Positions 2,676 to 25,931 of a stretch of 25,931 nt of DNA are shown one piece after another; within the stretch, counting starts at the first letter, position 1; every line of letters starts with the position of its first letter. The notes beneath the pieces are model-generated. The model had not been told where the DNA came from. It did no database searches and saw only the letters and a list, made by a program, of their open reading frames with translations. The stretch comes from a virus, in IMG/VR virus record IMGVR_UViG_3300017666_000007, positions 1 to 25,931 of that record; one strand, written 5' to 3'. A program made the position numbers and the translations under genes.

Positions 2676-3173
2676 TCAACGCATGCTATCATCGTTGCAG
2701 CATTGAAGCAACATATCGAGCAAACTCTCCCACTTTTCACGGGTGAACAGATAGGCCATTCCTCCAGCGAGCTCCCAGGCATCGACCACCTTTTGGCGAT
2801 CATCGATCAGGATCCCATCTTTCGATGCAAACCAGGCTTTAGAAGCGGTATTCAAGCAGAACGCCACAGGATATTCCTCAAATCCAACCGAGCTAAGGAA
2901 ATCAAGCTTTTGCTTGGCAATGTTGAGGTGCATTTTCCCGCCGCCAGTCGAGGTCATGAAGCTAAACTTCAGACCTGCTTTAATCAGCCCGTTAACCAGA
3001 GCAATCCCCTCAGGAATCGGCTTTAGGTTCGCGAAAAACCGATGAGCTGCGCAGTCTGAATTCCAAAACTCCTTTTGCCCAGCTTTGGTAAGTGACTCGA
3101 AATCTTTTCCGTAAAGCTCTAGGATTCCGTTCTCGAAATCCGCCACGAGCCCGTCCATATCGATGTAAATCAT
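2676..3173 (-). CDS. HAD-superfamily 5'-(deoxyribo)nucleotidase, NT5C type
   Basis: This 165-aa protein opens with MIYIDMDGLVADFENG, the DxD motif I of the HAD superfamily (nucleophile D5, acid/base D7). It ends with GILIDDRQKVVDAWELAGG, motif IV followed by the helix typical of cytosolic 5'(3')-deoxyribonucleotidases. The segment FSFMTSTGG supplies the motif II Ser/Thr. These enzymes remove phosphate from (d)NMPs, so a role in nucleotide pools during phage growth is likely. The ATG overlaps the stop of the DUF4942 gene (ATGA), so the two are translationally coupled. The length fits bacterial/phage NT5C members. The fold is secure, the exact substrate is not. Confidence 0.78.
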   Translation of the reverse strand: MIYIDMDGLVADFENGILELYGKDFESLTKAGQKEFWNSDCAAHRFFANLKPIPEGIALVNGLIKAGLKFSFMTSTGGGKMHLNIAKQKLDFLSSVGFEEYPVAFCLNTASKAWFASKDGILIDDRQKVVDAWELAGGMAYLFTREKWESLLDMLLQCCNDDSMR

Positions 3174-4006
3174 TGTTTTTCCCCCAATCGGTTTCGACCA
3201 CAGATCAGATTGAATCGGTCAAGTAAATCGATTCGCTTGAATTCCAGGTGCAAGTTTCCGTTCTTGAAGCACTTGAACTTGAAATACTCGGTTTCGCCAG
3301 CTCCATCGGAATTGTGAATCGCATCAACCAGCGGACCGTGAACTCCGCTGGCTATGCAACCTTGCCCATCAAGCAGGTGAAAGATGTTATCGATCGAGGT
3401 CAAGTGTCTTCGTCGATCCCAGTTGGTTTCCCATCTGTTCCAACTTCGGGAAATCATGTATCCCTTGATCACTTTCTTATCAAGTCGATATTGGCTTTTC
3501 TTGTTGGTTTTCAGCTTCTCCCACTGGGAATGCGACTTGAAAAAGTCGTATTCTTCACGAATTGCTTCTTCGAGAAACTCTTCTGCACTGGAGCAGTAAC
3601 CGGCAATGACTTCGTTGATACCTTCGGCGGTGATATCGGGAAGTTTATCGACGTCGCAAAGATTGTTGCTGTAGAGCACTGAATCGAGTTCCTTTTGTCT
3701 CGCAGAAGACATTACCTTTTGAACTCCAAGCCTTGCGATGAGGATCCGCCAAGCATTCTGTTTGAACGCTCGAGCGATATCCTCGGTTCCATTCGATCGG
3801 TAGTTCGAAGTTTGAATCTTCGCTTCGAATGCATTGGAACGAAACTTGTCCTCGGGCTGAAACGCTTCGTTTAAGTGCTCCAGCGCATTTCGCAAGAGGT
3901 TTTGAGATTCCGCGATCGCTTCCATAGATCGCTCGAACGCATCGGCCATTTGACTGACCGATGAGAATGGAATCATTTCAGAGTTAACGATAGATGCTTG
4001 GATCAT
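3170..4006 (-). CDS. DUF4942-domain phage protein
   Basis: This 278-aa protein resembles DUF4942, a domain found in phages, prophages and plasmids. In other phages it is often fused to a SAM-dependent methyltransferase, which is absent here. Recognisable parts are NAWRILIARLGVQKVMS, then FLEEAIREEYDFFKSH, then the central KVIKGYMI...LTSIDNIFHLLDGQG, and the C-terminal FKFKCFKNGNLHLEFKRIDL followed by FNLICGRN. The last block ('K.FkNGNvHl.F.r.DL...N') is the clearest family mark. The molecular function of DUF4942 is not established. The gene is coupled by ATGA overlaps at both ends. Confidence is good for the family, low for any role. Confidence 0.72.
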   Translation of the reverse strand: MIQASIVNSEMIPFSSVSQMADAFERSMEAIAESQNLLRNALEHLNEAFQPEDKFRSNAFEAKIQTSNYRSNGTEDIARAFKQNAWRILIARLGVQKVMSSARQKELDSVLYSNNLCDVDKLPDITAEGINEVIAGYCSSAEEFLEEAIREEYDFFKSHSQWEKLKTNKKSQYRLDKKVIKGYMISRSWNRWETNWDRRRHLTSIDNIFHLLDGQGCIASGVHGPLVDAIHNSDGAGETEYFKFKCFKNGNLHLEFKRIDLLDRFNLICGRNRLGEKQ

Positions 4007-4665: not shown

Positions 4666-5856
4666 ATGGGTGCGTTCAAGAAATCAATGCTGTCGCTCGG
4701 AACATACGAGAGCCCCGAAGGAACAATCGTGGTTACTCCTGATCGACTTATGCATTGGCAGCAAGCAGTAAAGAGGGTTCAGGATGCTGGGTACCAAATC
4801 CCAATGCGTTGGAACCACGCTGATCTAACTGACATAAAGAACCTACAACCGATCAAGCGATTGTCGACGCAGGAGTCATCCGAGAGAACCGCAGGTCATT
4901 TAGTTGATTTTCGTGTGTCCGAAGATGGTAGATCTGCAGAGATCATCGTTGAAACGTTAACCAAAACTGCAACAGAGGCTGTTGAATCGAATGCGGTTTT
5001 CATTTCACCGGTGCTTTTCGATGAGTGGGAGGACGGCCATGGCCAAACTTACTCCGACATTATTGGTTCCGTCGATCTGGTTGATCTTCCTGTTGATTAT
5101 TCGCAAAAACCATTTCAGCCAACCGTAATGGCGATGTCAACGAGTCGCAGGGCTCCATCGATTATTCGGATGGCAACCAAACCAAACAACGTGTACCGGC
5201 TTTCCACTGAGGCAAACATGGATCCAGAATCGCAAACAATCGACGAAGAAACGAATGCCGAATCCAATCCCAGCGAGGATCCAGCGATTCCCGAATCGTC
5301 GAGCATGCTTTCATCGGTGATCTCAGGACTGGCACAGTTGAAGATTGCATTGCCAGCGGACACGAATACCGAGAACTTTCTCGATCGATTGAACACCGCT
5401 TTGATGACTGCAGCCGCTCAGACAGCGGAAGAAGAGAATCCAAACCAAGTTGTGGATCCAGGAAATCCTGAACCTGTTTCCCCTGCAGTGGCAACCATGA
5501 GTACTCGCGTCAAGCAACTTGAGGATCGGATCCTCACTGAAGAAAGAGCCAAGGTCAAGAATCGCTTGGACAACCTGCTAACGACCGGCCGCATGAGCCC
5601 CGCAGAACACGCCGAGAAATCGACGGCTCTTGGAGTTCAACGAATGAGCCTGGGAACTGACGGAACAGTTAAGCAAGGCCGAATTGGTGATTTTATTGAG
5701 TCCCGAGAGGCGATTCCAGAGGGTGCCTTTTGGGATCCAAAGGAAAAGATCAAGCGGTTGAGTACTGCGACTCCCAAGAGCACTTGGACTAAAGGTGCGC
5801 CCGATGATGTCGAAGCGATGAAGCAACAGAAAAAACAAATGCTGCGCCGTGCGTAG
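4666..5856 (+). CDS. Prohead protease with C-terminal scaffold (Mu gpI-like)
   Basis: This is a 396-aa two-part protein. Residues 1 to about 150 look like a phage head-maturation protease: IPMRWNHADL supplies a His (H51) in the usual place, RTAGHLVDFRV follows, then AVFISPVLFDEW with S114 as candidate nucleophile, then DIIGSVDLVDLPVD. Residues ~185-396 are acidic and low complexity, then helical (RVKQLEDRILTEERAKVKN), ending in a basic tail, as in scaffold proteins. The fusion and the position just before decoration and capsid genes match the Mu I/Z and lambda C/Nu3 arrangement. The protease would cut scaffold and capsid proteins inside the prohead. The start ATG at 4666 has only a weak ribosome site. 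Catalytic residue assignment is by pattern only. Confidence 0.68.
   Translation: MGAFKKSMLSLGTYESPEGTIVVTPDRLMHWQQAVKRVQDAGYQIPMRWNHADLTDIKNLQPIKRLSTQESSERTAGHLVDFRVSEDGRSAEIIVETLTKTATEAVESNAVFISPVLFDEWEDGHGQTYSDIIGSVDLVDLPVDYSQKPFQPTVMAMSTSRRAPSIIRMATKPNNVYRLSTEANMDPESQTIDEETNAESNPSEDPAIPESSSMLSSVISGLAQLKIALPADTNTENFLDRLNTALMTAAAQTAEEENPNQVVDPGNPEPVSPAVATMSTRVKQLEDRILTEERAKVKNRLDNLLTTGRMSPAEHAEKSTALGVQRMSLGTDGTVKQGRIGDFIESREAIPEGAFWDPKEKIKRLSTATPKSTWTKGAPDDVEAMKQQKKQMLRRA
5218..5856 (+). CDS. Candidate nested scaffold protein (internal in-frame start)
   Basis: Inside the protease gene, ATG at 5218 is preceded by TGAGG (5208-5212) with a 5-base gap, a better ribosome site than that of the full-length gene. 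It lies exactly where the protease part ends and the acidic, coiled-coil part begins (MDPESQTIDEETNAES). A separate 212-aa scaffold made from the same frame is known for lambda Nu3 and Mu Z, which share their C-termini with the protease. The expression here is inferred. Confidence 0.45.
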   Translation: MDPESQTIDEETNAESNPSEDPAIPESSSMLSSVISGLAQLKIALPADTNTENFLDRLNTALMTAAAQTAEEENPNQVVDPGNPEPVSPAVATMSTRVKQLEDRILTEERAKVKNRLDNLLTTGRMSPAEHAEKSTALGVQRMSLGTDGTVKQGRIGDFIESREAIPEGAFWDPKEKIKRLSTATPKSTWTKGAPDDVEAMKQQKKQMLRRA

Positions 5857-6793: not shown

Positions 6794-7954
6794 ATGTACT
6801 TTCCACTGTTAGCTCCACAGGTCCTTACGAACGTCATCAGCCAACAAGCTGCTGTTTCTGAGTGGATTCTGAATCTATTTGGCGTCAACCACGGTGCCGA
6901 TGTCTCGGATCCGTTATTTGATTCAGAAACCGATGTTGCCAAAGGCGCCAACGTCCTCAACTTTGGGCATGGACGCAATGGAGCGTTCAGCGTGTTCGAC
7001 AACAGCCGAAGGGTTGCCAAGGGGCGTGCACCTGGAACGGCTGCCGCGCAATCGGGACTTCAAGACGTTGGAACGGTCCCGTTCACTTACCCTCGGATGT
7101 ACGATTCGATTAGGTTACTCGCTGAAACCTTTCACAATCTCGGTCTGATCAACGATCCTGCCCAACGGGACTTAATGGGTCGACGAATGATCGAGATGCA
7201 AACCCGAGTCAAGGCACAGGAGGCTGCGAACTGGCGGAAAGCAGCATTGATCGGTTCGTTACGATCCACACTGCGAGCACGTCGGAGCGGTGAAGATGTT
7301 CACTGGTCATTCACGACTGGTAATAGTGTTTCTCAGCAGATCCCGGCTGGAAATCTCGGTCAGTTGAACATGTTGGGAGCGGGTAACATTATTACAGCCT
7401 CGTGGGCCAATGCAGCTACGCGTATTAATGATCATCTCGATGGTATCAACACCGGGTTTCAACGTCTCTGCGGTGGAGCTCTTAAAGCATCGATCATTCC
7501 TGGTAGCGTTTGGTCGGCAATCATTGGAAACGATCAGATTCGAAATTTGGCGGGTATCGCAAATCCTCCTTTCGAAACTTTGAAGGTCGACGTCAACAGC
7601 AAAGTTGCTGTGACGATGAAGAACGTCAAGATTGCAAAGATTGTTAGCCAGCCCCAATGCACGTTCTACGTAACCGACGAAAACGTCATCCTCGATGATG
7701 GCGAACAGTCAATCGTTCCGACCGGAACCGGAATGTTTTTCGGTTTTGAACCAGACGACGGAACTGTCGCAGTCTATGAGGGATCCGAACCAGTTGCTGA
7801 ATACGATGGCGGTCCGGAAACGCTGCGAACTGGTTTTTCGTCCTGGTACGTGAAGAGGAGCAACCCGACGGCAACCGAGGTGTTCTTCTTGGATAACGCG
7901 ATGCCTGTGATTCACGTTCCTCGCGCTGTCGCTTTTGCAAACCTGATTTTCTAG
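6794..7954 (+). CDS. Major capsid protein
   Basis: This 386-aa protein directly follows the protease and decoration genes and is itself followed by a strong terminator, as is common for the most abundant virion protein. It starts with a helical arm (YFPLLAPQVLTNVISQQAAV), carries the long helix MGRRMIEMQTRVKAQEAANW (the spine-helix region of HK97-fold capsids), and has a C-terminal beta-rich part with FYVTDENVILDD and VFFLDNAMPVIHVPRA. I cannot name the exact capsid family. The ribosome site is a weak purine run (AAGAAAGAGA). The assignment rests on length, position and secondary-structure pattern. Confidence 0.72.
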   Translation: MYFPLLAPQVLTNVISQQAAVSEWILNLFGVNHGADVSDPLFDSETDVAKGANVLNFGHGRNGAFSVFDNSRRVAKGRAPGTAAAQSGLQDVGTVPFTYPRMYDSIRLLAETFHNLGLINDPAQRDLMGRRMIEMQTRVKAQEAANWRKAALIGSLRSTLRARRSGEDVHWSFTTGNSVSQQIPAGNLGQLNMLGAGNIITASWANAATRINDHLDGINTGFQRLCGGALKASIIPGSVWSAIIGNDQIRNLAGIANPPFETLKVDVNSKVAVTMKNVKIAKIVSQPQCTFYVTDENVILDDGEQSIVPTGTGMFFGFEPDDGTVAVYEGSEPVAEYDGGPETLRTGFSSWYVKRSNPTATEVFFLDNAMPVIHVPRAVAFANLIF

Positions 7955-8070: not shown

Positions 8071-8592
8071 ATGACCCCACTCACTTCAGCGCAAGAAATG
8101 CAGGACGCTCTGAGTCAAGCAGGGGTCGTTGCGTTTTCTGATCATAACAACGATGGATTCGAGGATACGAATCTTGTCGATTCTTGCATTGTATTTGCTA
8201 CTGGTTTCATTGGCGGAAAGCTCGCGAAACTGTTCACGCTTGTCGCTCTCGCGACAGCTCCAGTCATTCGCGAGTTTGCAACCATAGTTGCTGTGCGAAC
8301 GTTATGCACACGTAGGGGAAACCCTATTCCCGAATCGATCGAAATGCGATACCGCGAGATCGTCGACAAGGATGGTTTCCTCGATCAGATCGCCAAAGGT
8401 GGAATGTCATTGCTTGACGAAGACGGGGAGCTTTTAGTAGGAAAAAGTTTTGCACCAACGATGTCCAATTTGGTGGTTGATCGACGTCACCTATCCCGAA
8501 AGATCCGAGTCAAACAGGGATCAAGCTCTCAGGCTGTCACTCCACTAAATCGCAATATTGCGGGATATGCGAGGGATGGCCATGTCTACTGA
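8071..8592 (+). CDS. Head-tail connector, DUF1320 / Mu gp36-like
   Basis: This is a 173-aa protein with the helical layout of head-tail adaptor proteins of the DUF1320 (Mu gp36) type. Early residues MTPLTSAQEMQDALSQAGVV are followed by an acidic DHNNDGFEDTNLVDSC helix. Then comes the long helix PVIREFATIVAVRTLCTRRG with 'IPESIEMRYREIV...FLDQIAKGGMSL', where Mu gp36 members have 'p..v...y..a...L..ia.G...L'. CAGGAAA (8055-8061) is the ribosome site. Such proteins form the ring between portal and tail. Position after the capsid gene agrees. Its last 11 bases overlap the next gene. Confidence 0.65.
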   Translation: MTPLTSAQEMQDALSQAGVVAFSDHNNDGFEDTNLVDSCIVFATGFIGGKLAKLFTLVALATAPVIREFATIVAVRTLCTRRGNPIPESIEMRYREIVDKDGFLDQIAKGGMSLLDEDGELLVGKSFAPTMSNLVVDRRHLSRKIRVKQGSSSQAVTPLNRNIAGYARDGHVY

Positions 8593-14896: not shown

Positions 14897-17800
14897 ATGT
14901 TGCAAAAAATCAAATCTTTATTCACAAGACGGCCAACTTCGGACCAACCTACAACGCCGGTCACGAAGGGCTATAAGCCTATGGTGCGCACGTGGTTTCA
15001 ACAGCCACGAGATCTACCGCCATTTAGTTTCGATACGATCTATTCGATGCTCTTGGACCCGCAAGTGCGTCTCTGTCTTGCCATGCGACAGGCACCAATT
15101 CATAACGTGCAGCTCGCCTACCAAAAAGGATTCGATTCCAGCGGCAAACCAATCTGGATCAATGGAGTTAAAGCCAGAAATCCTGCTGTCGCCGCATGGG
15201 TACAAAGGCAAGTTCAAACTATCTGGACGAACTACCTACCCGAAATCTTAAAGGCACAGGTTTGGGGCTGGAGTGGCGGCGAAGTCACGGTTCGACTATC
15301 CGAACACAATCTACTTGAAATCGATCGATTGCTTCCGAGGCACGCTGCTGACGTTTTGCTCCTGAAAGACCATGGAGATCGATACGGAATTCGAGTAAAG
15401 CGGATAACGAATTGTGGCGAGGTCGATCTTCCATTTCCGTATTGCTGGTTTCACACCTTCAATCCCGATGCAGGCGAAGACTACGGAAATCCAGTACTCT
15501 TGGGAGCGTATTCGCCATGGGCTGATAAGTGGCTCGATGGAGCGGCGCTCGATACTCGTAGGCTTTACATGCATAAAGACGCCTATGGCGGGATGAAGAT
15601 CGGCTATCCCGAAGAGTCTGTATACGTCGATGGGCAAGAGAAGCCGGTCTCGGCTAGGGATCTCGCGCTACAAATCGCAGAACAGCGGGCAGCCGGTGGA
15701 ACCGTCACCTATCCCACAACCAGAGATGGAATGGGTAACGCCAAATGGGAAATCCAAGACGCGACGGTATCGAGTAACCCCGCCCACATCTTGCAGTTTC
15801 CTAAGGATCTCGATGATGAGATTCGAATCGGAATGGAAATTCCCGATGATGTAATCAGCTCCGATGGAGTTGGTGGCTGGGCCGGTAAACGCGTAACGCT
15901 AGCAGCGTTTTATTCAGGTTTGGATTCTTGGGTGACTCAAATCTTCAGGGATTTGAGACTCACTTTGGAGCCGCTCGTAATGCTGAACTGGGGCAAGGCT
16001 CTGGATTTTGATATTTGCTTCAAACCGCTTGAGCAAGTGGCCATGGAGCAACAATCGGGAGCGGGCGGTTTCCAGCCAGGTCAACAACAAGCACAGCAGC
16101 CAGCTGCACCTGGAAACCCAGCTCTTCAAATCCCTTCGCGATTGATGAGCACAGTACGCGTAGATGAAAAGGACATCGATCCGAATCTTTCGGCAGAAGC
16201 GATCGCAGAGATACTGCAAAGTATCTTTGGCGATGATGCGGAGAAGATGTTCGAAAAGGCCTACTCCGAACCCGTAAAGCGGATGGGTACCTGGAAAGCA
16301 ATCGATCACCCGCGAGGGCCAGACGGGCGATTCATCGAAAAGAACAGCCCTCAAGCGGTTTCTGCGGCTAAGGACAAGATCCAAAACGTCCTTCAGGGAG
16401 AGCGAACCGAAACGGCTTTGCGCGAGATCTCTTCACACCTTTCGATTCTTACTACCAAGCAACTGCGAGAGCTCCAGCGCGAGAACAACATTAAAGCGGG
16501 TGGAGCGAAACCTTCCCTTGTAGCGAAGATTGCAGAACGGTTGCATGGCAAACCGGTTGAATCCAAAAAACGAGACGATTCAACACCTAAGAATCCTGAC
16601 AACCAAGACGTCTACACTGTTCCAGTAGATAGCCTGAAGGTCGATCCAAAGCGATTCCAGTACAAAGTAAAAGGGGTCGACGATACGGGCGTTACTGCGG
16701 AACTGAAGGGCGTTGGTAAATGGAATCCCGAATTGGCGGGAGCACTTCTCGTTTGGCGAGATCCAGAAACCGGACAGGATTTCGTTGTTAATGGTCACCA
16801 CAGGCACGAACTAGCGACGCGGTTGAACGCTGGCCAAATCAACGTTCGTTACATCCAAGCCGAATCTGCACAGGAGGCACGCGCTCGGGGGGCGTTGGCA
16901 AACATCGCCGAGGGGCGAGGATCCGCGATCGATGCTGCAAAGTATCTGCGAGACTCTGGGAAGAACATCGATCACCTGAAGGAAGCGGGTATCTCGATGA
17001 CTGGCAAGGTTGCTGCGGATGCATCAATCTTGAAGGATTTGGCGGAAAAGCCGTTCCAGTTGGTCACCGAGGGGCGGCTGGACGAAGACAAAGCGATCGC
17101 GGTTGCACGTCATTTGAAGGATCCAGATCTTCAGCAAAAGCTATTCAAAAAGCTCGAGGATCGAGAATCGAACGATCAGCGCGAGTGGACGAATCGGGAA
17201 ATCGAAACGGCAGCTCGTAAGATGGCTTCTGCTGGATCGGTTACCCAAACAGGTTTCGATCTTTTCGGAGCTTTCGAAGAGGAACAATCGACGTTTGATC
17301 AAGAGGTTGAGCTTGAGGCTCACGTCTCTCGATTGTTGCAACAGGAGGCCAACGACTATCGAGCGGTTGCTAACAAGCGACGCGCCGAAAGGGTAACGGA
17401 TGCCGGGAACGTTTTAGCAGTTGATGAGAATGCAAAACGGGCGGACGCTGCGGAAAGTGCAGTGTCTGATTTTGACCGTCAGTCGAGAATTAAAGGATCC
17501 GTCAGTGAGGCGATTCAATCGCAAGCTGCGGCGCTCGCATCTGCAAAAACTAAGAAAGATCGGGATGCGATCAAAGAGCAAACCCTGGGAGCGGTTCGTG
17601 CTGCTCTTGGTGTCCAAAAGTCTGGCGATCGAAATCTGGAATCAGGTTTAGTCTGGCAGGGTGATAAATGGAGTCGAGATGAGCGAACCGGCGGTTTGGT
17701 TGAAAAAGCAACCATGCGCAACGCCCAACGCAATTGGCCAGAGCACCGAAATGCCTATGTCAAAAACTATGGAAGGCTCGGAGATGATGGAAAACTCGCA

Positions 17801-18535
17801 GGAGTCGTATTAAATACGGACGATTGGCGTTCGCAGTTCCCGCAATACAAAGGAACCAACGCACATGAGGTACATGAGGCAAGCGCGGAACTGAACAATC
17901 GGCTTTACAAAGAGGCCTTAAAGGAGACCAAGGGAAAGGGCAATGGTCGGATGTTGATCTTGGCTGGCGGAGGCGGATCTGGAAAAGGCACAGCGACGAA
18001 AAACCATTTCGATGTCAATGAATACCCGCTGGTTCTCGATCAGGCTTCAGCTAACTATCCAAAACTTGAAAAGAAACTCGATGAGGCGATCTCGGCTGGA
18101 TTCACTCCTCAACACGTTTTTATCGATCGAGGCGTCTCCGGTGCAACGGGTGGTGTGATTGGTAGAGCCATGAATGCACTGAAACGAGGAGAAATGCCAC
18201 GCACAGTTCCATTGTCGATCGCTATGGAAGCAAACATCGATTCAAGAAAAGCAACTTTGGAATTGTTGAAAAGAAGAAAGGATATTGACACATCGGTAAT
18301 CGATAATACAAGTGATAGAGGCGAGACACGACTGATCAAAGATAGAAATGAAGCGATCAAGTATCTTGAAGCTCGCATTGAAGAAGAAGACCGCAAATTA
18401 GGCGAATTTAAGGCCACAATGGAACTCGATTTGGCCAATAAGCTTAGATCTGGAGAGATTCCGGATGATGTAGCTATTGGGCTTATGGGGCAACAGTGGT
18501 TCGATAAAACAAAGGGCACAAGCGATGGAACTTAA
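14897..18535 (+). CDS. Portal protein fused to ParB-like and zeta-toxin-like domains
   Basis: This is one uninterrupted 1212-aa frame with ribosome site GAGGAAG six bases before ATG. Residues 1 to ~390 look like a DUF935/Mu gp29-type portal: PQVRLCLAMRQAPI, AQVWGWSGGEVTVRL, PYCWFHTFNPDAGEDYGNPV, then a helical stem. A Gln-rich linker (about 390-410) leads to a SAP-like stretch LTTKQLRELQRENNIKAGG. Residues ~573-690 form a ParB/Srx-type domain: VPVDSLKVDP, then GKWNPELAG, VVNGHHRHELA (about 631-640) and ARGALANIAEGRGSAIDAA. Helical linkers follow. Residues ~965-1212 form a zeta-toxin-like kinase with Walker A GGGGSGKGT (1024-1032, K1030) and candidate catalytic D1048 (LVLDQ). Normal portals are 400-550 aa. 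The fusion could deliver effectors with the virion; whether it is cut by the protease is unknown. Confidence 0.78.
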   Translation: MLQKIKSLFTRRPTSDQPTTPVTKGYKPMVRTWFQQPRDLPPFSFDTIYSMLLDPQVRLCLAMRQAPIHNVQLAYQKGFDSSGKPIWINGVKARNPAVAAWVQRQVQTIWTNYLPEILKAQVWGWSGGEVTVRLSEHNLLEIDRLLPRHAADVLLLKDHGDRYGIRVKRITNCGEVDLPFPYCWFHTFNPDAGEDYGNPVLLGAYSPWADKWLDGAALDTRRLYMHKDAYGGMKIGYPEESVYVDGQEKPVSARDLALQIAEQRAAGGTVTYPTTRDGMGNAKWEIQDATVSSNPAHILQFPKDLDDEIRIGMEIPDDVISSDGVGGWAGKRVTLAAFYSGLDSWVTQIFRDLRLTLEPLVMLNWGKALDFDICFKPLEQVAMEQQSGAGGFQPGQQQAQQPAAPGNPALQIPSRLMSTVRVDEKDIDPNLSAEAIAEILQSIFGDDAEKMFEKAYSEPVKRMGTWKAIDHPRGPDGRFIEKNSPQAVSAAKDKIQNVLQGERTETALREISSHLSILTTKQLRELQRENNIKAGGAKPSLVAKIAERLHGKPVESKKRDDSTPKNPDNQDVYTVPVDSLKVDPKRFQYKVKGVDDTGVTAELKGVGKWNPELAGALLVWRDPETGQDFVVNGHHRHELATRLNAGQINVRYIQAESAQEARARGALANIAEGRGSAIDAAKYLRDSGKNIDHLKEAGISMTGKVAADASILKDLAEKPFQLVTEGRLDEDKAIAVARHLKDPDLQQKLFKKLEDRESNDQREWTNREIETAARKMASAGSVTQTGFDLFGAFEEEQSTFDQEVELEAHVSRLLQQEANDYRAVANKRRAERVTDAGNVLAVDENAKRADAAESAVSDFDRQSRIKGSVSEAIQSQAAALASAKTKKDRDAIKEQTLGAVRAALGVQKSGDRNLESGLVWQGDKWSRDERTGGLVEKATMRNAQRNWPEHRNAYVKNYGRLGDDGKLAGVVLNTDDWRSQFPQYKGTNAHEVHEASAELNNRLYKEALKETKGKGNGRMLILAGGGGSGKGTATKNHFDVNEYPLVLDQASANYPKLEKKLDEAISAGFTPQHVFIDRGVSGATGGVIGRAMNALKRGEMPRTVPLSIAMEANIDSRKATLELLKRRKDIDTSVIDNTSDRGETRLIKDRNEAIKYLEARIEEEDRKLGEFKATMELDLANKLRSGEIPDDVAIGLMGQQWFDKTKGTSDGT

Positions 18536-18953
18536 ACTTGCTGACAACAACCGATTTCCGCTAACGACTCAAGCAGGGCTTTCCGAGGAAGATCAAGCTC
18601 TGATTGATTCAATCAATCTCGACCAATTACGAGAAATGATCGAGCTAGAAGAACCGATGAACGATCGGCAAAAAGCGAGATTGCTGGAACTTGAAGAAAA
18701 GCATTCTTTACGAGTCGAGGCAGCGAAAAAAGCTGGAATTCGATTCACAGGAGAACCTGTTCCCGAGAAAACGAAGGAACCGGAAGAAAATCCGGAAGCT
18801 AATACGGAACAACCTCAAGCACAAGAAGAGGTCTATCGCGGGGATCCACGATTCCGTTTAACGGATGAACAAGCGGCAAGAGTCGCGAAGGGGCATAGAG
18901 ATATGATGGAGATGCCAAACAAACCTCCGATTGATTTGACGAAGGATGATTAA
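18525..18953 (+). CDS. Acidic 142-aa protein coupled to the portal fusion
   Basis: ATG 18525 lies after AAAGGG and overlaps the last 11 bases of the portal gene; the stop overlaps the MuF start (TAATG). The protein is acidic, with helices at LSEEDQALIDSINLDQLREM and NDRQKARLLELEEKHSLRVE. A Pro/Glu-rich, probably disordered linker (PEKTKEPEENPEANTEQPQ) follows, then a C-terminal helix RLTDEQAARVAKGHRDMMEM. I recognise no domain. Because it directly follows a zeta-like toxin domain, it could restrain that domain. A packaging, scaffold or head protein role is equally possible. It does not resemble the classical epsilon antitoxin. Confidence 0.65.
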   Translation: MELKLADNNRFPLTTQAGLSEEDQALIDSINLDQLREMIELEEPMNDRQKARLLELEEKHSLRVEAAKKAGIRFTGEPVPEKTKEPEENPEANTEQPQAQEEVYRGDPRFRLTDEQAARVAKGHRDMMEMPNKPPIDLTKDD

Positions 18954-19960
18954 TGGTTGCAATCTCGGAATCGCTTATTCAGCAGTCATTGTTTGAGGCC
19001 CAATCGCTTTACGCATTGGTTCAGAAGGACATCGCCTCAACCCTGCTAAATTCAAGTGTCATCATGCCAAACGCGATTCCGACGTTAATTCAACGGGCTG
19101 TTGATGCCTATCGTCCTGTGTTGATTTCTCATCTCACGGCATCAAAGCTGTCGAGCTGGATCCTAGGGGCGGATCAAGTAGCCAAGCAATTTCCCGAGTG
19201 GCTTCTCCGCGAATTTTCGACAGGTGTTCGATCAGATCGCAATCCTCCGAGCTGGTTTCAAGAGGAAACTCAAGAAGCTTCCGATCCCGAGCCGCGATTC
19301 TCGATCATTCTTAATGCCATGGAGCGGCTATCGGAGCGAAACATCATTTCGCGCGAACAGTGGGATCTTGCAAGCGATGTCGCCCAACAGAACGCGTTCA
19401 TGATCACTGGCGAAATTACTCTCGATACGATCGAGCGCGTTCGTGACGAGTTGATTCAAGATCTTTCGACTGGTACCTCCCTCGGTGGGTTCAAGAATCG
19501 AGTTGGAGAGATTCTCGTAAGATCAGGTCTAGGCGACGCGAGAATTGAAACGATTTACCGAACCAACGTTCAGTCAGCATTTCGCGACGGTAGGGAAACT
19601 ATCGCTCGCGATCCGCTCGTGATGGAGGCCTTCCCGTATCAGGCTTACCTCGCTATTCACGACGCGCGAGTTCGAAGTAATCATTTGGCACTTGAATCTC
19701 TGGGATTGAGCGGAACGAATATCTACCGTCGAGACGATCCATTTTGGGATTATTGGACCCCTCCAAACGGTTTCAATTGTCGCTGTGGTGTTCAACTCAT
19801 GACCGTGGAGCAAGCAGCTGCAGCTGGTGTAAGAGAGGCAATCCTGTGGCTCGAATCAGGCAGAACACCTGAGAGACCGGAACATCGGCTCAACTACATT
19901 CCATTTGAACCGGAACCAGGTTTCGGTTTCAGTGGGCGTTACGGGGCGATGGTGGCGTAA
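18953..19960 (+). CDS. Phage Mu F-like minor head protein (SPP1 gp7 family)
   Basis: This 335-aa protein has the MuF/SPP1 gp7 core in its C-terminal two thirds. The family sequence is clear: ETIYRTNVQSAFRDGRE (YRTN at 202-205), then AYLAIHDARVRSNHLAL, then DPFWDYWTPPNGFNCRCGVQ with the NCRC metal-type motif at 275-278. The N-terminal part is helical and specific to this phage. MuF proteins sit on or near the portal inside the head and are needed for proper particles and DNA ejection. No toxin domain is appended here, in contrast to the portal. The gene is coupled on both sides by TAATG. Confidence 0.85.
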   Translation: MVAISESLIQQSLFEAQSLYALVQKDIASTLLNSSVIMPNAIPTLIQRAVDAYRPVLISHLTASKLSSWILGADQVAKQFPEWLLREFSTGVRSDRNPPSWFQEETQEASDPEPRFSIILNAMERLSERNIISREQWDLASDVAQQNAFMITGEITLDTIERVRDELIQDLSTGTSLGGFKNRVGEILVRSGLGDARIETIYRTNVQSAFRDGRETIARDPLVMEAFPYQAYLAIHDARVRSNHLALESLGLSGTNIYRRDDPFWDYWTPPNGFNCRCGVQLMTVEQAAAAGVREAILWLESGRTPERPEHRLNYIPFEPEPGFGFSGRYGAMVA

Positions 19961-23926: not shown

Positions 23927-24139
23927 TTGTACCAGTCCGACATCAATCGATTGCTCGCAGCGAGTCTTGGCGCTAATGCCAGCTTTCCCGCAGAACCTGG
24001 ACTAGACTTACAAGCCCAACTGGCTGCTATAGTGAAGGCGTCGTATTCATCCCTGCCGGTTAAACTGGCATATTGGCACCATTTCGCTTCAAGCATCGTT
24101 GAATCGCTGCTTAAACTCGAGCTCGTGCGGTATGAGTAA
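23927..24139 (+). CDS. 70-aa unknown protein, possibly truncated
   Basis: A TTG start at 23927 gives 70 aa; the frame is open back to 23891 without an ATG, so it may be the 3' end of a gene cut by the prophage. The sequence is helical and Leu/Ala-rich (INRLLAASLGANASFP, QAQLAAIVKASYSSL, FASSIVESLLKLE). The last 8 bases (ATGAGTAA) overlap the start of the DUF4062 gene, which argues that it is or was part of that operon. I do not recognise the family. Confidence 0.4.
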   Translation: MYQSDINRLLAASLGANASFPAEPGLDLQAQLAAIVKASYSSLPVKLAYWHHFASSIVESLLKLELVRYE

Positions 24140-24748
24140 GAAACAAAATAAGCCCATCACAATTATGGTCTCGTCGACCGTATACGGTAGCGAAGATGTT
24201 CTCGATCGTGTTTACGACTTGCTCACATCTTTCGGCTATGAAGTGTGGATGTCTCACAAAGGAACTCTGCCAGTGTTCTCTAAACAGTCCGCATTTGAGA
24301 ATTGTCTGGAAGGAGTTCGCCGGGCACTCGTTATGGCACTGGGATTAAAAAACAGGATCCAGATTCGCTATCCATCGTTCACCAAGAGTTGCGACTTGCT
24401 ATTGAACTCAAGAAAGCTAGATGGCTTCTTGCGCATGAGAATATTCTGACGGCACGAACCCTCTTCTCTAAACTAGGGTATGTGGGAGTCGAAGGACGAA
24501 AGTCCCTCACTTTAAAACCCTCCGACGTGCTGGAAGATAAACGGCTTATCGACATGTATGAGGAGGCTACTTTTGACCGATTGCCGCTAGATGAAAGAAA
24601 GGGTAATTGGGTTCAAAAGTTTCATGACTATCAAGACTCAGGTCGCTACATTATCTTTCAATTCCGTCGGTATCAGGAAATAGAAGCTTATATTCGCGAG
24701 GGATTCGATGCGGTACCTCCGTTCTCGGAATTAGGAGGTTCGTCATGA
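24132..24748 (+). pseudogene. DUF4062-domain gene broken by a frameshift
   Basis: The first 65 codons from ATG 24132 give a clear DUF4062 start: ITIMVSSTVYGSEDVLDRV, then FGYEVWMSHKGTLPVFSKQS and FENCLEGVRRA. The family normally continues with a 'DlFlGii...YG.G' strand. Here that strand is missing and the remaining GTRYGTGIKKQDPDSLSIVH continues in another frame, up to the stop at 24748. The break lies at about 24319-24332 and fits a small deletion of a length equal to 1 modulo 3. The C-terminal part (AIELKKARWLLAHENIL, FHDYQDSGRYIIFQFRRYQE) is otherwise intact. DUF4062 is a Rossmann-like domain linked by others to TIR-like conflict proteins. Either the gene is inactive or the assembly lacks bases here. 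Confidence 0.7.
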
Positions 24749-25931
24749 AGGCAAGCGACATTTGCGAACAGTTGAGTTTGGGGGATGCTCTTCAGGTTGA
24801 GTTTAAATCCAAGCTAGTTCCCTTTGATAGTATTGGCCGCGTGATTAGCGGTCTTCTCAATACTTCCGGTGGGTTTGTGATCTGTGGCATTGGTTCCGAG
24901 AGCGAAATCTTGGGAGTCAATGTTAAAATGGAGCAATTGGCTGAGTTCGAGAGTCGTCTTCATGCGAGCATCTCTCCGAAAACAATGATCTCTGTCCAGC
25001 CACAGACCTTGCAGGGGAAACAGCTTGTTGTCATCGAAGTGCCGAAGGGGCATGATGTGCCCTACTCCTTTAAGAACGTGATTTATCTTCGAGACGGAAA
25101 TCAAACCAAGCCAGCCGACGGTGCTACGATTCGGCAATTGGTTTTAAATGCAGAGATCGCTCCAGAGCGATGGGAGCGTCGCCTCTCGTTAGCCAATATT
25201 GAGACAGATGTTGCTTCTGATGCGGTCATGGCTACTGTTCGTGATGCCCAGCGAGTTCAACGAGCCTTCTTCTCCGATCCGACAGATGTGGTTCGCACTT
25301 TGGAGGATCTGTCCGCCGCCAAATACGGGCGACTTACTAATGGTGGTGATGTTCTTTTCGCTCGTAACCCTGCCGAGCGTCTGCCTCAAATTCGAATTCG
25401 AGCGATTCGCTACAACTCTGACAAAGCAGGTGACAAGTTTAGCGACATGAAGTCCTTTGAAGGGCCGCTAAGCAGTATCTTCGAGGAGGCGTATAGCTTT
25501 ATTGTTCGTAACATTCCCAGTATCTCTAGGTTTCTAAGGGGGGATCCGAAACGACATGACTCGCCACTTTATCCTGAGGAAGCTGTTCGGGAAGCACTAA
25601 TCAATGCGTTAGCTCATCGCGACTACAGTGCATCATCGGGTGGGGTAAGCATTCACGTGTTCCCTCGTCGATTGGAGATTTGGAACTCAGGCCCATTACC
25701 CGAGGGAGTCACCGAGGCCAATCTCCTCAAAGGGCATATCTCGGTACTTCGCAATCCAGACATCGCACATGTTCTCTATCTACAAGGTCTCATGGAAAAG
25801 GCAGGGCGGGGCAGCGTTCTAATGGTAAAGCAATGCCAGGATGCTGGGCTACCAGCGCCGGCGTGGAAATCTGATCCCAAGCTCGGCGTTACCGTTGTTT
25901 TCCAGGCCCCCGAAGTCACCCCCGAAGTCAC
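24745..25931 (+). CDS. AlbA_2/Schlafen-type ATP-binding protein (RecG-like, 3' end outside window)
   Basis: ATG 24745 overlaps the DUF4062 stop (ATGA). The frame is open to the end of the window, 395 codons. The N-terminal 120 residues match AlbA_2 (Schlafen/SLFN-like): LQVEFKSKLVPFD with E19, K21, then LLNTSGGFVICGIG and VPYSFKNVIYLRDG. Residues ~270-385 match the RecG-associated HATPase domain: EEAVREALINALAHRDYS (N box), LEIWNSGPLPEGV (G1 box) and LMEKAGRGSVLMV (G2 box). The frame then enters a PEVTPEVT repeat, encoded by 12-base units from 25909, the usual linker before a C-terminal winged helix. Such proteins are probably DNA-binding ATP-dependent regulators; several occur in defence islands. 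It is chromosomal or island DNA, not phage late region. Confidence 0.8.
   Translation, partial: MKASDICEQLSLGDALQVEFKSKLVPFDSIGRVISGLLNTSGGFVICGIGSESEILGVNVKMEQLAEFESRLHASISPKTMISVQPQTLQGKQLVVIEVPKGHDVPYSFKNVIYLRDGNQTKPADGATIRQLVLNAEIAPERWERRLSLANIETDVASDAVMATVRDAQRVQRAFFSDPTDVVRTLEDLSAAKYGRLTNGGDVLFARNPAERLPQIRIRAIRYNSDKAGDKFSDMKSFEGPLSSIFEEAYSFIVRNIPSISRFLRGDPKRHDSPLYPEEAVREALINALAHRDYSASSGGVSIHVFPRRLEIWNSGPLPEGVTEANLLKGHISVLRNPDIAHVLYLQGLMEKAGRGSVLMVKQCQDAGLPAPAWKSDPKLGVTVVFQAPEVTPEV

What the first reader, a model, noticed from the sequence alone, without database searches (positions are those of the whole stretch)
14897..18535. Portal protein carrying ParB-like and zeta-kinase-like domains in one chain
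One open frame of 1212 residues joins a DUF935-like portal to a SAP-like stretch, a ParB/Srx-type domain (VVNGHHRHELA) and a zeta-type P-loop domain (GGGGSGKGT, D1048). Toxin and ParB domains are known in MuF-linked and 'polyvalent' phage proteins that enter the cell with the DNA, but here they hang on the portal itself, of which a virion has twelve copies. The portal C-terminus faces the head interior, so the domains could be packaged and, if released by the prohead protease at the Gln-rich linker, injected. This would be an effector-loaded portal aimed at rival elements or host cell-wall precursors (UDP-GlcNAc is the classical zeta substrate).
Basis: partly seen in the sequence, partly recalled or inferred. 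Interest (0 to 1): 0.88.

Follow-up and report, generated by a model that had tools for sequence, protein, structure and literature searches.

The report
Phage portal carrying kinase effector cargo
A virus of bacteria has welded a DNA-binding module and a likely cell-wall-poisoning kinase onto the ring protein through which its DNA is packaged, and a small neighbouring gene looks like the kinase's antidote; cargo on this ring protein is already known, but I found no description of this combination or of the antidote gene.

Summary
One intact frame (14897-18535, 1212 aa) joins a Mu-type portal, a SAP-bearing header, a two-domain ParB-like module and a zeta-like kinase; a 91%-identical copy and a third, more distant copy on other contigs make a frameshift artefact very unlikely. 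The novelty is less than claimed: a 2017 paper already describes effectors fused to portals and zeta kinases fused to MuF, and PHROG_21 ("portal protein") already contains this ParB extension. Two things are new to me. (1) The kinase is not a classical zeta: its blocks run Asp-block, P-loop, DxT-block, the rewired order of Neisseria ng_zeta1, and its model fits ng_zeta1 at Z 22.4 against 12.6 for classical zeta. That predicts C4' rather than C3' phosphorylation of UDP-sugars. (2) A small gene (18525-18953) overlaps the kinase end. In three of five distinct relatives with this kinase its homologue lies out of frame inside the big gene, each with AAGGAG-N7-ATG. A profile of the non-nested copies finds the nested ones at 41.6-47.0 bits, among 102 loci only in kinase-bearing contigs. 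I read it as a candidate antitoxin. Packaging, injection, kinase activity and neutralisation are inferred, not shown.

The parts
14897..18535 (+). portal-ParB-kinase fusion gene, 1212 aa
   Evidence: same frame in L002 and same architecture in L077
14897..16096 (+). portal domain (about residues 1-400), Mu-type
   Evidence: Pfam Portal_Mu above cut-off over residues 49-212; PDB profile rings portals only, weakly; MuF gene downstream
16073..16141 (+). Gln-rich linker (residues 393-415)
   Evidence: sequence
16196..16576 (+). header module (about residues 434-560): AEAIAEIL..., DHPRGPDGRFI motif at 470, SAP-like stretch 525-559
   Evidence: repeated twice in L066-type portals and present in both L077 proteins; SAP sub-threshold
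16427..17611 (+). ParB-like module as modelled and searched, with the end of the header (residues 511-905)
16592..16915 (+). ParB N-domain (residues 566-673), NGHHRHELA at 632
   Evidence: model md9331b495f22 residues 56-163
16874..17236 (+). ParB/Noc-like DNA-binding-domain region (residues 660-780)
   Evidence: VIA match to the Noc DNA-binding domain 6y93, Z 6.5, model residues 150-270; weak taken alone
17684..18532 (+). rewired zeta-type kinase as modelled (residues 930-1212)
   Evidence: model mab5b016ed792, best match 6eph/6epg/6epi
17807..17830 (+). Asp block VLNTDDWR (residues 971-978), upstream of the P-loop
17966..17992 (+). P-loop GGGGSGKGT (residues 1024-1032)
18525..18953 (+). small gene, 142 aa, ATG overlaps the fusion's stop by 11 nt; candidate antitoxin/immunity protein (N-terminal half)
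18953..19960 (+). MuF minor head protein, separate gene
   Evidence: Pfam Phage_Mu_F E 2.3e-11

Best explanation
The gene is a portal used as a chassis for exchangeable cargo. Shown from sequence and models: portal, then a header that recurs in relatives and ends in a SAP-like segment, then a ParB-like module, then a rewired zeta-type kinase. Inferred: portal subunits assemble with their C-terminal cargo inside the head, where SAP and ParB hold it near the packaged DNA; cargo is freed by a protease and enters the next cell with the DNA. There the kinase would phosphorylate UDP-sugar precursors of the cell wall at C4', as ng_zeta1 does, stalling wall synthesis of the infected host or of competitors. 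The small gene overlapping the 3' end would make a protein that binds the kinase and keeps it silent during virion production or in a lysogen. The ParB module is probably the more general cargo and the kinase an add-on.
For: Frame kept in three records. ParB module in the same ORF as a portal in 22 of 76 ORFs examined: window-type 9, lambda-type PF05136 10, Mu-type PF06074 3, near-duplicate contigs counted; in one MuF protein with canonical zeta; in large proteins at the internal-core position of two T7-like phages. Cargo differs between close portals: L007-type carry LPD1 and 2H/Acb1-like domains instead of the kinase; header recurs ahead of cargo. Kinase fold: Foldseek E 2.5e-10, TMq 0.68, VIA Z 22.4 (258 aligned, rmsd 3.9) to ng_zeta1 against Z 12.6 (189 aligned) to classical zeta; Pfam profile segments 47-93 and 94-189 flank the P-loop in L002; published block swap and C4' chemistry. 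D975, R978, K1030 and R1090 match D56, K59, K115 and R175 of ng_zeta1 by spacing only. Small gene.
Against: No virion, cleavage, injection, kinase or neutralisation data. Identity to ng_zeta1 is about 15% in the structural alignment and profile search found no zeta chain in the PDB up to E 10. K59 is Arg here; N75 and R181 could not be placed. No HExxH protease motif in the 26 window ORFs checked; the head-protease match is weak (E 0.019). In the genome loci with kinases of this class the small partner was not found: best 5.0 bits among 528 ORFs of nine loci with short flanks. Pfam showed no effector domain in six of the seven portal-ParB fusions scanned (L043, L048, L055, L060, L063, L012; L007 has some), so ParB may serve packaging rather than attack.
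Confidence: 0.5

Rival explanations
1. The SAP-ParB part is a DNA-handling device of the head (packaging, ordering or post-entry protection of the genome), and the kinase acts on a nucleotide or sugar during assembly or early infection; no toxin is delivered.
For: Portal-ParB fusions without the kinase dominate: of 22 portal fusions only L002 and L077 (plus the window, not counted) have it. The ParB model includes an N-domain and an HTH-like domain.
Against: The kinase matches a characterised bacterial toxin. Other portals of the same type carry 2H/Acb1-like domains, which PMC5512222 discusses as conflict domains.
Confidence: 0.25
2. The small gene is a head assembly or cargo-loading factor, not an antitoxin.
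For: Its C-terminal half has a weak counterpart (E 2e-5 and 4e-5) out of frame in L013 and L012, which lack the kinase; it lies between portal and MuF in the window.
Against: Its N-terminal half is found only in kinase contigs (16 of 16 profile hits over 102 loci, re-fetched contigs counted; the same 6 contigs as), also where the kinase is not on a portal. L007-type phages, which have no kinase, gave no homologue of it, and only 67 bases separate their portal and MuF frames.
Confidence: 0.35
3. The nested out-of-frame small ORFs are chance open frames of a low-complexity linker.
For: Frame openness alone is unremarkable in L014: 1580 of 3000 synonymous resamples stay open (558 in L079, 176 in L080). 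Third-position bias is modest, 18 of 38 and 18 of 40 differences. The AAGGAG also encodes kinase residues.
Against: 41.6-47.0 bits to a profile of non-nested copies, against a best of 15.2 in 9000 resamples; AAGGAG-N7-ATG in all three distinct nested copies; beyond the kinase, identity of L014 to L079 or L080 is 28-29 of 45 in the nested frame against 20-21 of 44 in the main frame.
Confidence: 0.1
4. Assembly or frameshift artefact: separate genes joined by error.
For: L013 has portal and ParB as separate neighbouring ORFs; L042 and L044 are split by 52- and 56-nt deletions.
Against: Two further contigs keep the frame.
Confidence: 0.02

Closest known systems
Polyvalent proteins and portal/MuF effector fusions (PMC5512222, J Bacteriol 2017; passages read)
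   Same: Effector domains on head proteins including portals (2H, PBECR, InPase); zeta-like kinase on MuF; DdrB-like ParB in phage late genes
   Different: Portal, ParB and kinase in one chain, a rewired kinase and a partner gene are not named in the passages read
ng_zeta1 of Neisseria gonorrhoeae (PMC5923241, Nat Commun 2018; passages and sections 6 and 9 read)
   Same: Kinase fold with two sequence blocks swapped; P-loop late in the chain; catalytic Asp to P-loop Lys spacing 59 there, 55 here
   Different: Plasmid-borne toxin with an added OB-fold domain and its own antitoxin; here the kinase ends a portal and a different small gene follows
MuF polymorphic toxins (PMC5576092, BMC Biol 2017; passages read)
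   Same: Head protein gene next to the portal with toxin domains
   Different: Carrier here is the portal; MuF is a separate 335-aa gene with only the MuF domain matched
PHROG_21 'portal protein'
   Same: Profile positions 958-1348 match this ParB module
   Different: The window's portal half gave no stretch in it
ParB/Noc/KorB proteins
   Same: N-domain plus HTH-like fold in the model; weak PHROG 'ParB-like partition' matches in some relatives
   Different: No Pfam ParB match in 35 members; the recalled ENxxR motif reads NIAEGR here

Membership tests
Mu-type phage portal (PF06074) | Pfam score above the curated cut-off | tested here: met
   29.9 against 23.9 bits, partial profile 5-154 of 336; L077's portal is below it, 19.8; hhalign of the five-member profile against single L063 and L043 portals was not significant
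Mu-type phage portal (PF06074) | Twelve-fold ring in the virion | not testable with these tools
   needs structure or virion mass spectrometry
Zeta toxin (PF06414), classical block order | P-loop before the Asp block | tested here: not met
   Asp block 971-978, P-loop 1024
ng_zeta1-type rewired zeta kinase | Swapped order Asp block, P-loop, DxT-like block | tested here: met
   swap published in PMC5923241
ng_zeta1-type rewired zeta kinase | Fold closer to ng_zeta1 than to classical zeta | tested here: met
   Z 22.4 against 12.6; TMq 0.68 against 0.53
ng_zeta1-type rewired zeta kinase | Residues D56, K59, N75, K115, R175, R181 | tested here: inconclusive
   D56, K115 and R175 by spacing only; K59 is Arg; N75 and R181 not placed; no residue alignment available
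ng_zeta1-type rewired zeta kinase | C4'-OH phosphorylation of UDP-sugars | not testable with these tools
   needs assay
epsilon/zeta toxin-antitoxin system | Cognate small antitoxin gene | tested here: inconclusive
   conserved overlapping small gene in all seven kinase records, window included; binding untested
ParB/Noc family | ParB N-domain and HTH fold | tested here: met
   Z 10.6 to Noc 7nfu over model residues 58-270, 192 aligned, rmsd 5.6; Z 10.5 and 2.5 A over the N-domain alone; the HTH part alone is weak, Z 6.5
ParB/Noc family | CTP motifs GERRxxA and ENxxR (recalled) | tested here: inconclusive
   G, R, A of the first invariant in 35 members; second altered
DdrB-like ParB (PMC5512222) | Asp/Asn at the end of strand 2, conserved Arg, extra helix with Tyr | tested here: inconclusive
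   Asn and Arg invariant; Tyr helix not identified; no ParB-type Pfam family among the matches of 35 members
Polyvalent protein | Several effector domains on a virion-borne protein | tested here: inconclusive
   domains present; virion location inferred

The most novel reading that the evidence does not exclude
A virion-delivered, portal-borne toxin-antitoxin unit: a rewired C4' UDP-sugar kinase loaded on the packaging ring, whose antitoxin is encoded by an overlapping gene that in related phages is nested entirely out of frame inside the toxin-bearing polyvalent gene, so the cargo can be exchanged only together with its own immunity.
Probability: 0.33. Interest if true: 0.82.

Novelty: new variant of a known kind. 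Interest (0 to 1): 0.62.

Why it matters
If true, the portal is a second delivery chassis beside MuF, with modular cargo that can be swapped behind a recurring header. The kinase gives a direct, testable substrate prediction (C4' phosphate of UDP-sugars). An antitoxin written in another frame of the cargo gene would explain how phages make a toxin as part of the virion without harming their own factory, and would offer a sequence rule for finding immunity genes that annotation pipelines may skip.

Tried and rejected
Tried, little or nothing gained: tblastn of the portal part (E up to 0.01) and of the kinase part (E up to 0.1) against 50,697 phage records gave no match, the kinase against 72,556 plasmids none, the small protein against phages none up to E 10. 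The kinase against the PDB by sequence gave no zeta or related kinase; ParB likewise no ParB. NCBIfam named nothing in the fusion. Automatic peptide patterns for the kinase gave nothing confirmed, then only L076 and L077, and nothing in genomes. A P-loop pattern over the genome collection gave 7 places, none of this family by reading their translations. Profile A3 rang in 0 of 4 genomes, 0 of 398 of the phylum of G006 and 7 of 288 of the phylum of G005, a Verrucomicrobiales record. Of the nine places behind those 7 genomes, eight read as this kinase or a part of it, with the Asp block visible upstream of the P-loop in six (four genomes), and one (L109) looks like chance.

Rejected: that the small partner is universal to this kinase class. 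In nine genome loci no homologue was found (best 5.0 bits); in the seven whose frames after the kinase I tested, open runs were not unusual (179 or more of 1000 resamples reached them), although L106 and L111 show a start with a 4- or 5-base Shine-Dalgarno match. Rejected: programmed frameshift in the L042/L044 group; the split comes from 52- and 56-nt deletions relative to the fused copies. Considered: that the homology of the small gene in L014/L080 was kinase conservation read in another frame; the small ORF sits in a different register to the kinase there, so this fails. A profile of canonical zeta domains (6 sequences) against the six kinases gave only weak, partly out-of-order segments, best 11.3 bits.
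Full report
What is there. The frame 14897-18535 is open for 1212 codons from an ATG. The record is a 25,931-base virus contig. The same 1212-residue frame exists on a second contig, L002 (IMGVR 3300044941_000221, 91% in the best segment), and a third contig, L077 (3300005525_000955), has a diverged 1369-residue frame with the same order of parts. A sequencing frameshift is therefore very unlikely. Head genes around it are Mu-like: Phage_Mu_Gp36 at 8071-8592, above its cut-off, and MuF at 18953-19960; a major head protein at 6794-7954 and a head protease at 4666-5856 are only weakly matched (E 0.005 and 0.019).

Portal. Pfam Portal_Mu matches residues 49-212 above its cut-off. The profile of five related portals rings six PDB sequences, all named portal, but each only at E 0.036-0.047. 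hhalign of that profile against single Mu-type and lambda-type portals was not significant. With MuF two genes downstream I accept the portal, at perhaps 0.95.

Header. About residues 434-560 contain W.AIDHPRGP.GRFI.KNSP.A..AA followed by a SAP-like stretch. A similar block of about 140 residues occurs twice in the 1984-residue portals of L066 type (motif at 561 and 1542), once in the L077 portal and again in the next L077 gene; pairwise identity runs from 60 of 144 to 86 of 145 positions. The strict motif was in 8 of 76 ParB-bearing ORFs, all with window-type portals, and in the window itself. It precedes cargo and looks like a cargo boundary or recombination anchor (inference).

ParB module. 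A scan of viral contigs with residues 511-905 gave 70 loci from 75 matching stretches. With the other fetched records I examined 76 ORFs, dropping the window itself and re-fetches of the same contigs. A portal lies in the same ORF in 22 of 76: 9 window-type, 10 lambda-type and 3 Mu-type. Many are near-duplicates; in the reduced set of 37 representatives the portal is in the same ORF in 11. It is a separate neighbouring ORF in L013, L042 and L044. One ORF, L049, joins MuF, two canonical zeta domains and two ParB modules. tblastn found the module in 19 phage records: 17 Prochlorococcus phages, one uncultured phage, one Ruegeria phage. I opened one of each. In the Prochlorococcus and the uncultured record it lies in a large protein four genes after the annotated tail tubular gene, the region of internal virion proteins that are ejected in T7 (recalled); in the Ruegeria record it lies in a giant protein among unnamed genes. 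The model (pLDDT 81.6, pTM 0.62, 35 sequences) matches ParB, Noc and KorB over N-domain and HTH-like domain: Z 10.6 for Noc with 192 aligned at 5.6 A, and 2.5 A over the N-domain alone with ParB 7bm8. No ParB family is among the Pfam matches of the 35 members; some relatives have PHROG 'ParB-like partition' matches. PHROG_21 matches the module at E 1.5e-100, so the fusion sat in a public profile under the name portal protein.

Kinase. The motifs run VLNTDDWR (971), HEVHEAS (990), P-loop GGGGSGKGT (1024), VLDQAS (1046). In a canonical zeta such as L049's, the P-loop comes first, then the Asp and the HEES helix, then VLDGT. Pfam's profile shows it independently: in L002 profile positions 47-93 lie upstream and 94-189 downstream of the P-loop (position by arithmetic). 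The model (pLDDT 83.8, pTM 0.82, six sequences) matches ng_zeta1 of Neisseria gonorrhoeae best (Foldseek E 2.5e-10; VIA Z 22.4, 258 aligned, rmsd 3.9), then classical zeta (Z 12.6, 189 aligned) and another zeta-like kinase structure (4z8t, Z 11.6). After deriving the swap from the sequence I found it reported for ng_zeta1 in PMC5923241: two blocks swapped, the substrate turned by 180 degrees, phosphate on C4'. By spacing alone D56, K59, K115 and R175 correspond to D975, R978, K1030 and R1090; these four residues of the window are invariant in the six aligned kinases. The rewired order is also visible in six loci of four genomes from the phylum of a Verrucomicrobiales record; PMC5512222 mentions zeta-like kinases in polyvalent proteins of Verrucomicrobium.

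Where the kinase occurs. Six viral contigs match the P-loop pattern: those of L002, L077, L014, L015, L079 and L080, besides the window. L014 and L015 read alike in this region, so I count five distinct relatives. In all of them the kinase is C-terminal to a ParB module in the same ORF. In L002 and L077 the carrier is the portal; in L014, L079 and L080 it is another large protein, and a separate, distantly related portal ORF is found in L014, L015 and L079.

Small gene. In the window ATG 18525 overlaps the fusion's stop by 11 bases and the gene runs to 18953. Related small proteins follow the kinase in L002 and L077. In L014, L079 and L080 they are encoded in the +1 frame inside the large ORF, starting within the end of the kinase; the L079 copy is cut by the contig end. 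A profile from the three non-nested copies only finds the nested ones at 41.6-47.0 bits (E 8.7e-11 to 1.8e-12 among 12,364 ORFs from 102 loci); all 16 hits at E up to 0.1 come from kinase contigs, re-fetches of the same contigs included. The best of 9000 synonymous resamples scored 15.2. All three distinct nested copies have AAGGAG-N7-ATG, expected by chance 0.04-0.10 times per locus; L014 has one further match elsewhere. Past the kinase, nested-frame identity of L014 to L079 or L080 is 28-29 of 45 against 20-21 of 44 in the main frame, which equals the third frame; for the close pair L079 and L080 it is 43 of 45, 38 of 44 and 40 of 44. A pattern made from the small protein hits exactly the same six contigs of the viral collection; it was built from these copies, so it shows specificity, not completeness. 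I conclude that it is a real gene tied to the kinase (0.85) and most likely its antitoxin or silencer (0.55).

Against this. The C-terminal half of the window's small protein has a weak counterpart out of frame in L012 and L013, which have no kinase, so that half may do something else. Kinases of this class in the genome loci have no recognisable partner within their short flanks and no unusual nested frame. The AAGGAG lies in kinase codons, so its conservation is not independent.

Mechanism, with steps marked. Shown: fusion, fold class, linked small gene. From published families: portal C-termini lie on the head side (recalled); ng_zeta1 drains UDP-sugar pools at C4' (PMC5923241). Inferred: packaging, release, injection, target, neutralisation. 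The window has no HExxH motif in the 26 ORFs checked, whereas the L077 neighbour gene carries the header, an HEFGH motif and a weak metallopeptidase match (E 0.0037, below its cut-off), so a releasing enzyme remains open.

Novelty. Portal-effector fusions and MuF-zeta fusions are in print (also portal fusions of 2H and Nudix domains in PMC9503650, passages). In six searches for portal with ParB, zeta, MuF or nested antitoxins no listed title or abstract start describes this architecture or the nested partner; two searches listed 12 of 160 and 12 of 14 papers, and the library lacks most subscription journals. I therefore rate it a new variant of a known kind.

Noticed in passing
L012:8884-9222 and L013:3217-3555: A second out-of-frame small ORF, after ParB, with the motif LTxEQ..RV..HR.MM..P..PIDLT shared with the C-terminal half of the window's small gene, in phages without the kinase.
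   Followed up: partly
L007/L008/L009/L010/L066, portal ORF of 1984 residues: Relatives of the window portal carry LPD1 and a 2H phosphoesterase resembling the anti-CBASS protein Acb1 instead of the kinase (Pfam on L007 and L066 only); a portal-borne anti-defence candidate.
   Followed up: partly
L049:3867-9086: One MuF protein with two canonical zeta domains and two ParB modules.
   Followed up: partly
L042 and L044 against L043, L045: 52- and 56-nt deletions in the portal-ParB linker split an otherwise fused gene; the linker DNA seems deletion-prone or misassembled.
   Followed up: partly
L077:7595-10189: 865-aa protein joining a small-gene homologue, a header/SAP block and a weak metallopeptidase match with HEFGH; possible cargo-releasing protease.
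   Followed up: partly
window 24099-25929: A DUF4062-like frame followed by an AlbA_2/Schlafen-like frame running off the end (names recalled, not searched); may be a defence or accessory pair.
   Followed up: no
window 3170-4006 and 2676-3173, minus strand: DUF4942 protein (E 1.2e-31) next to a weak 5'-nucleotidase match (E 0.0005, below cut-off).
   Followed up: no
   Followed up: partly
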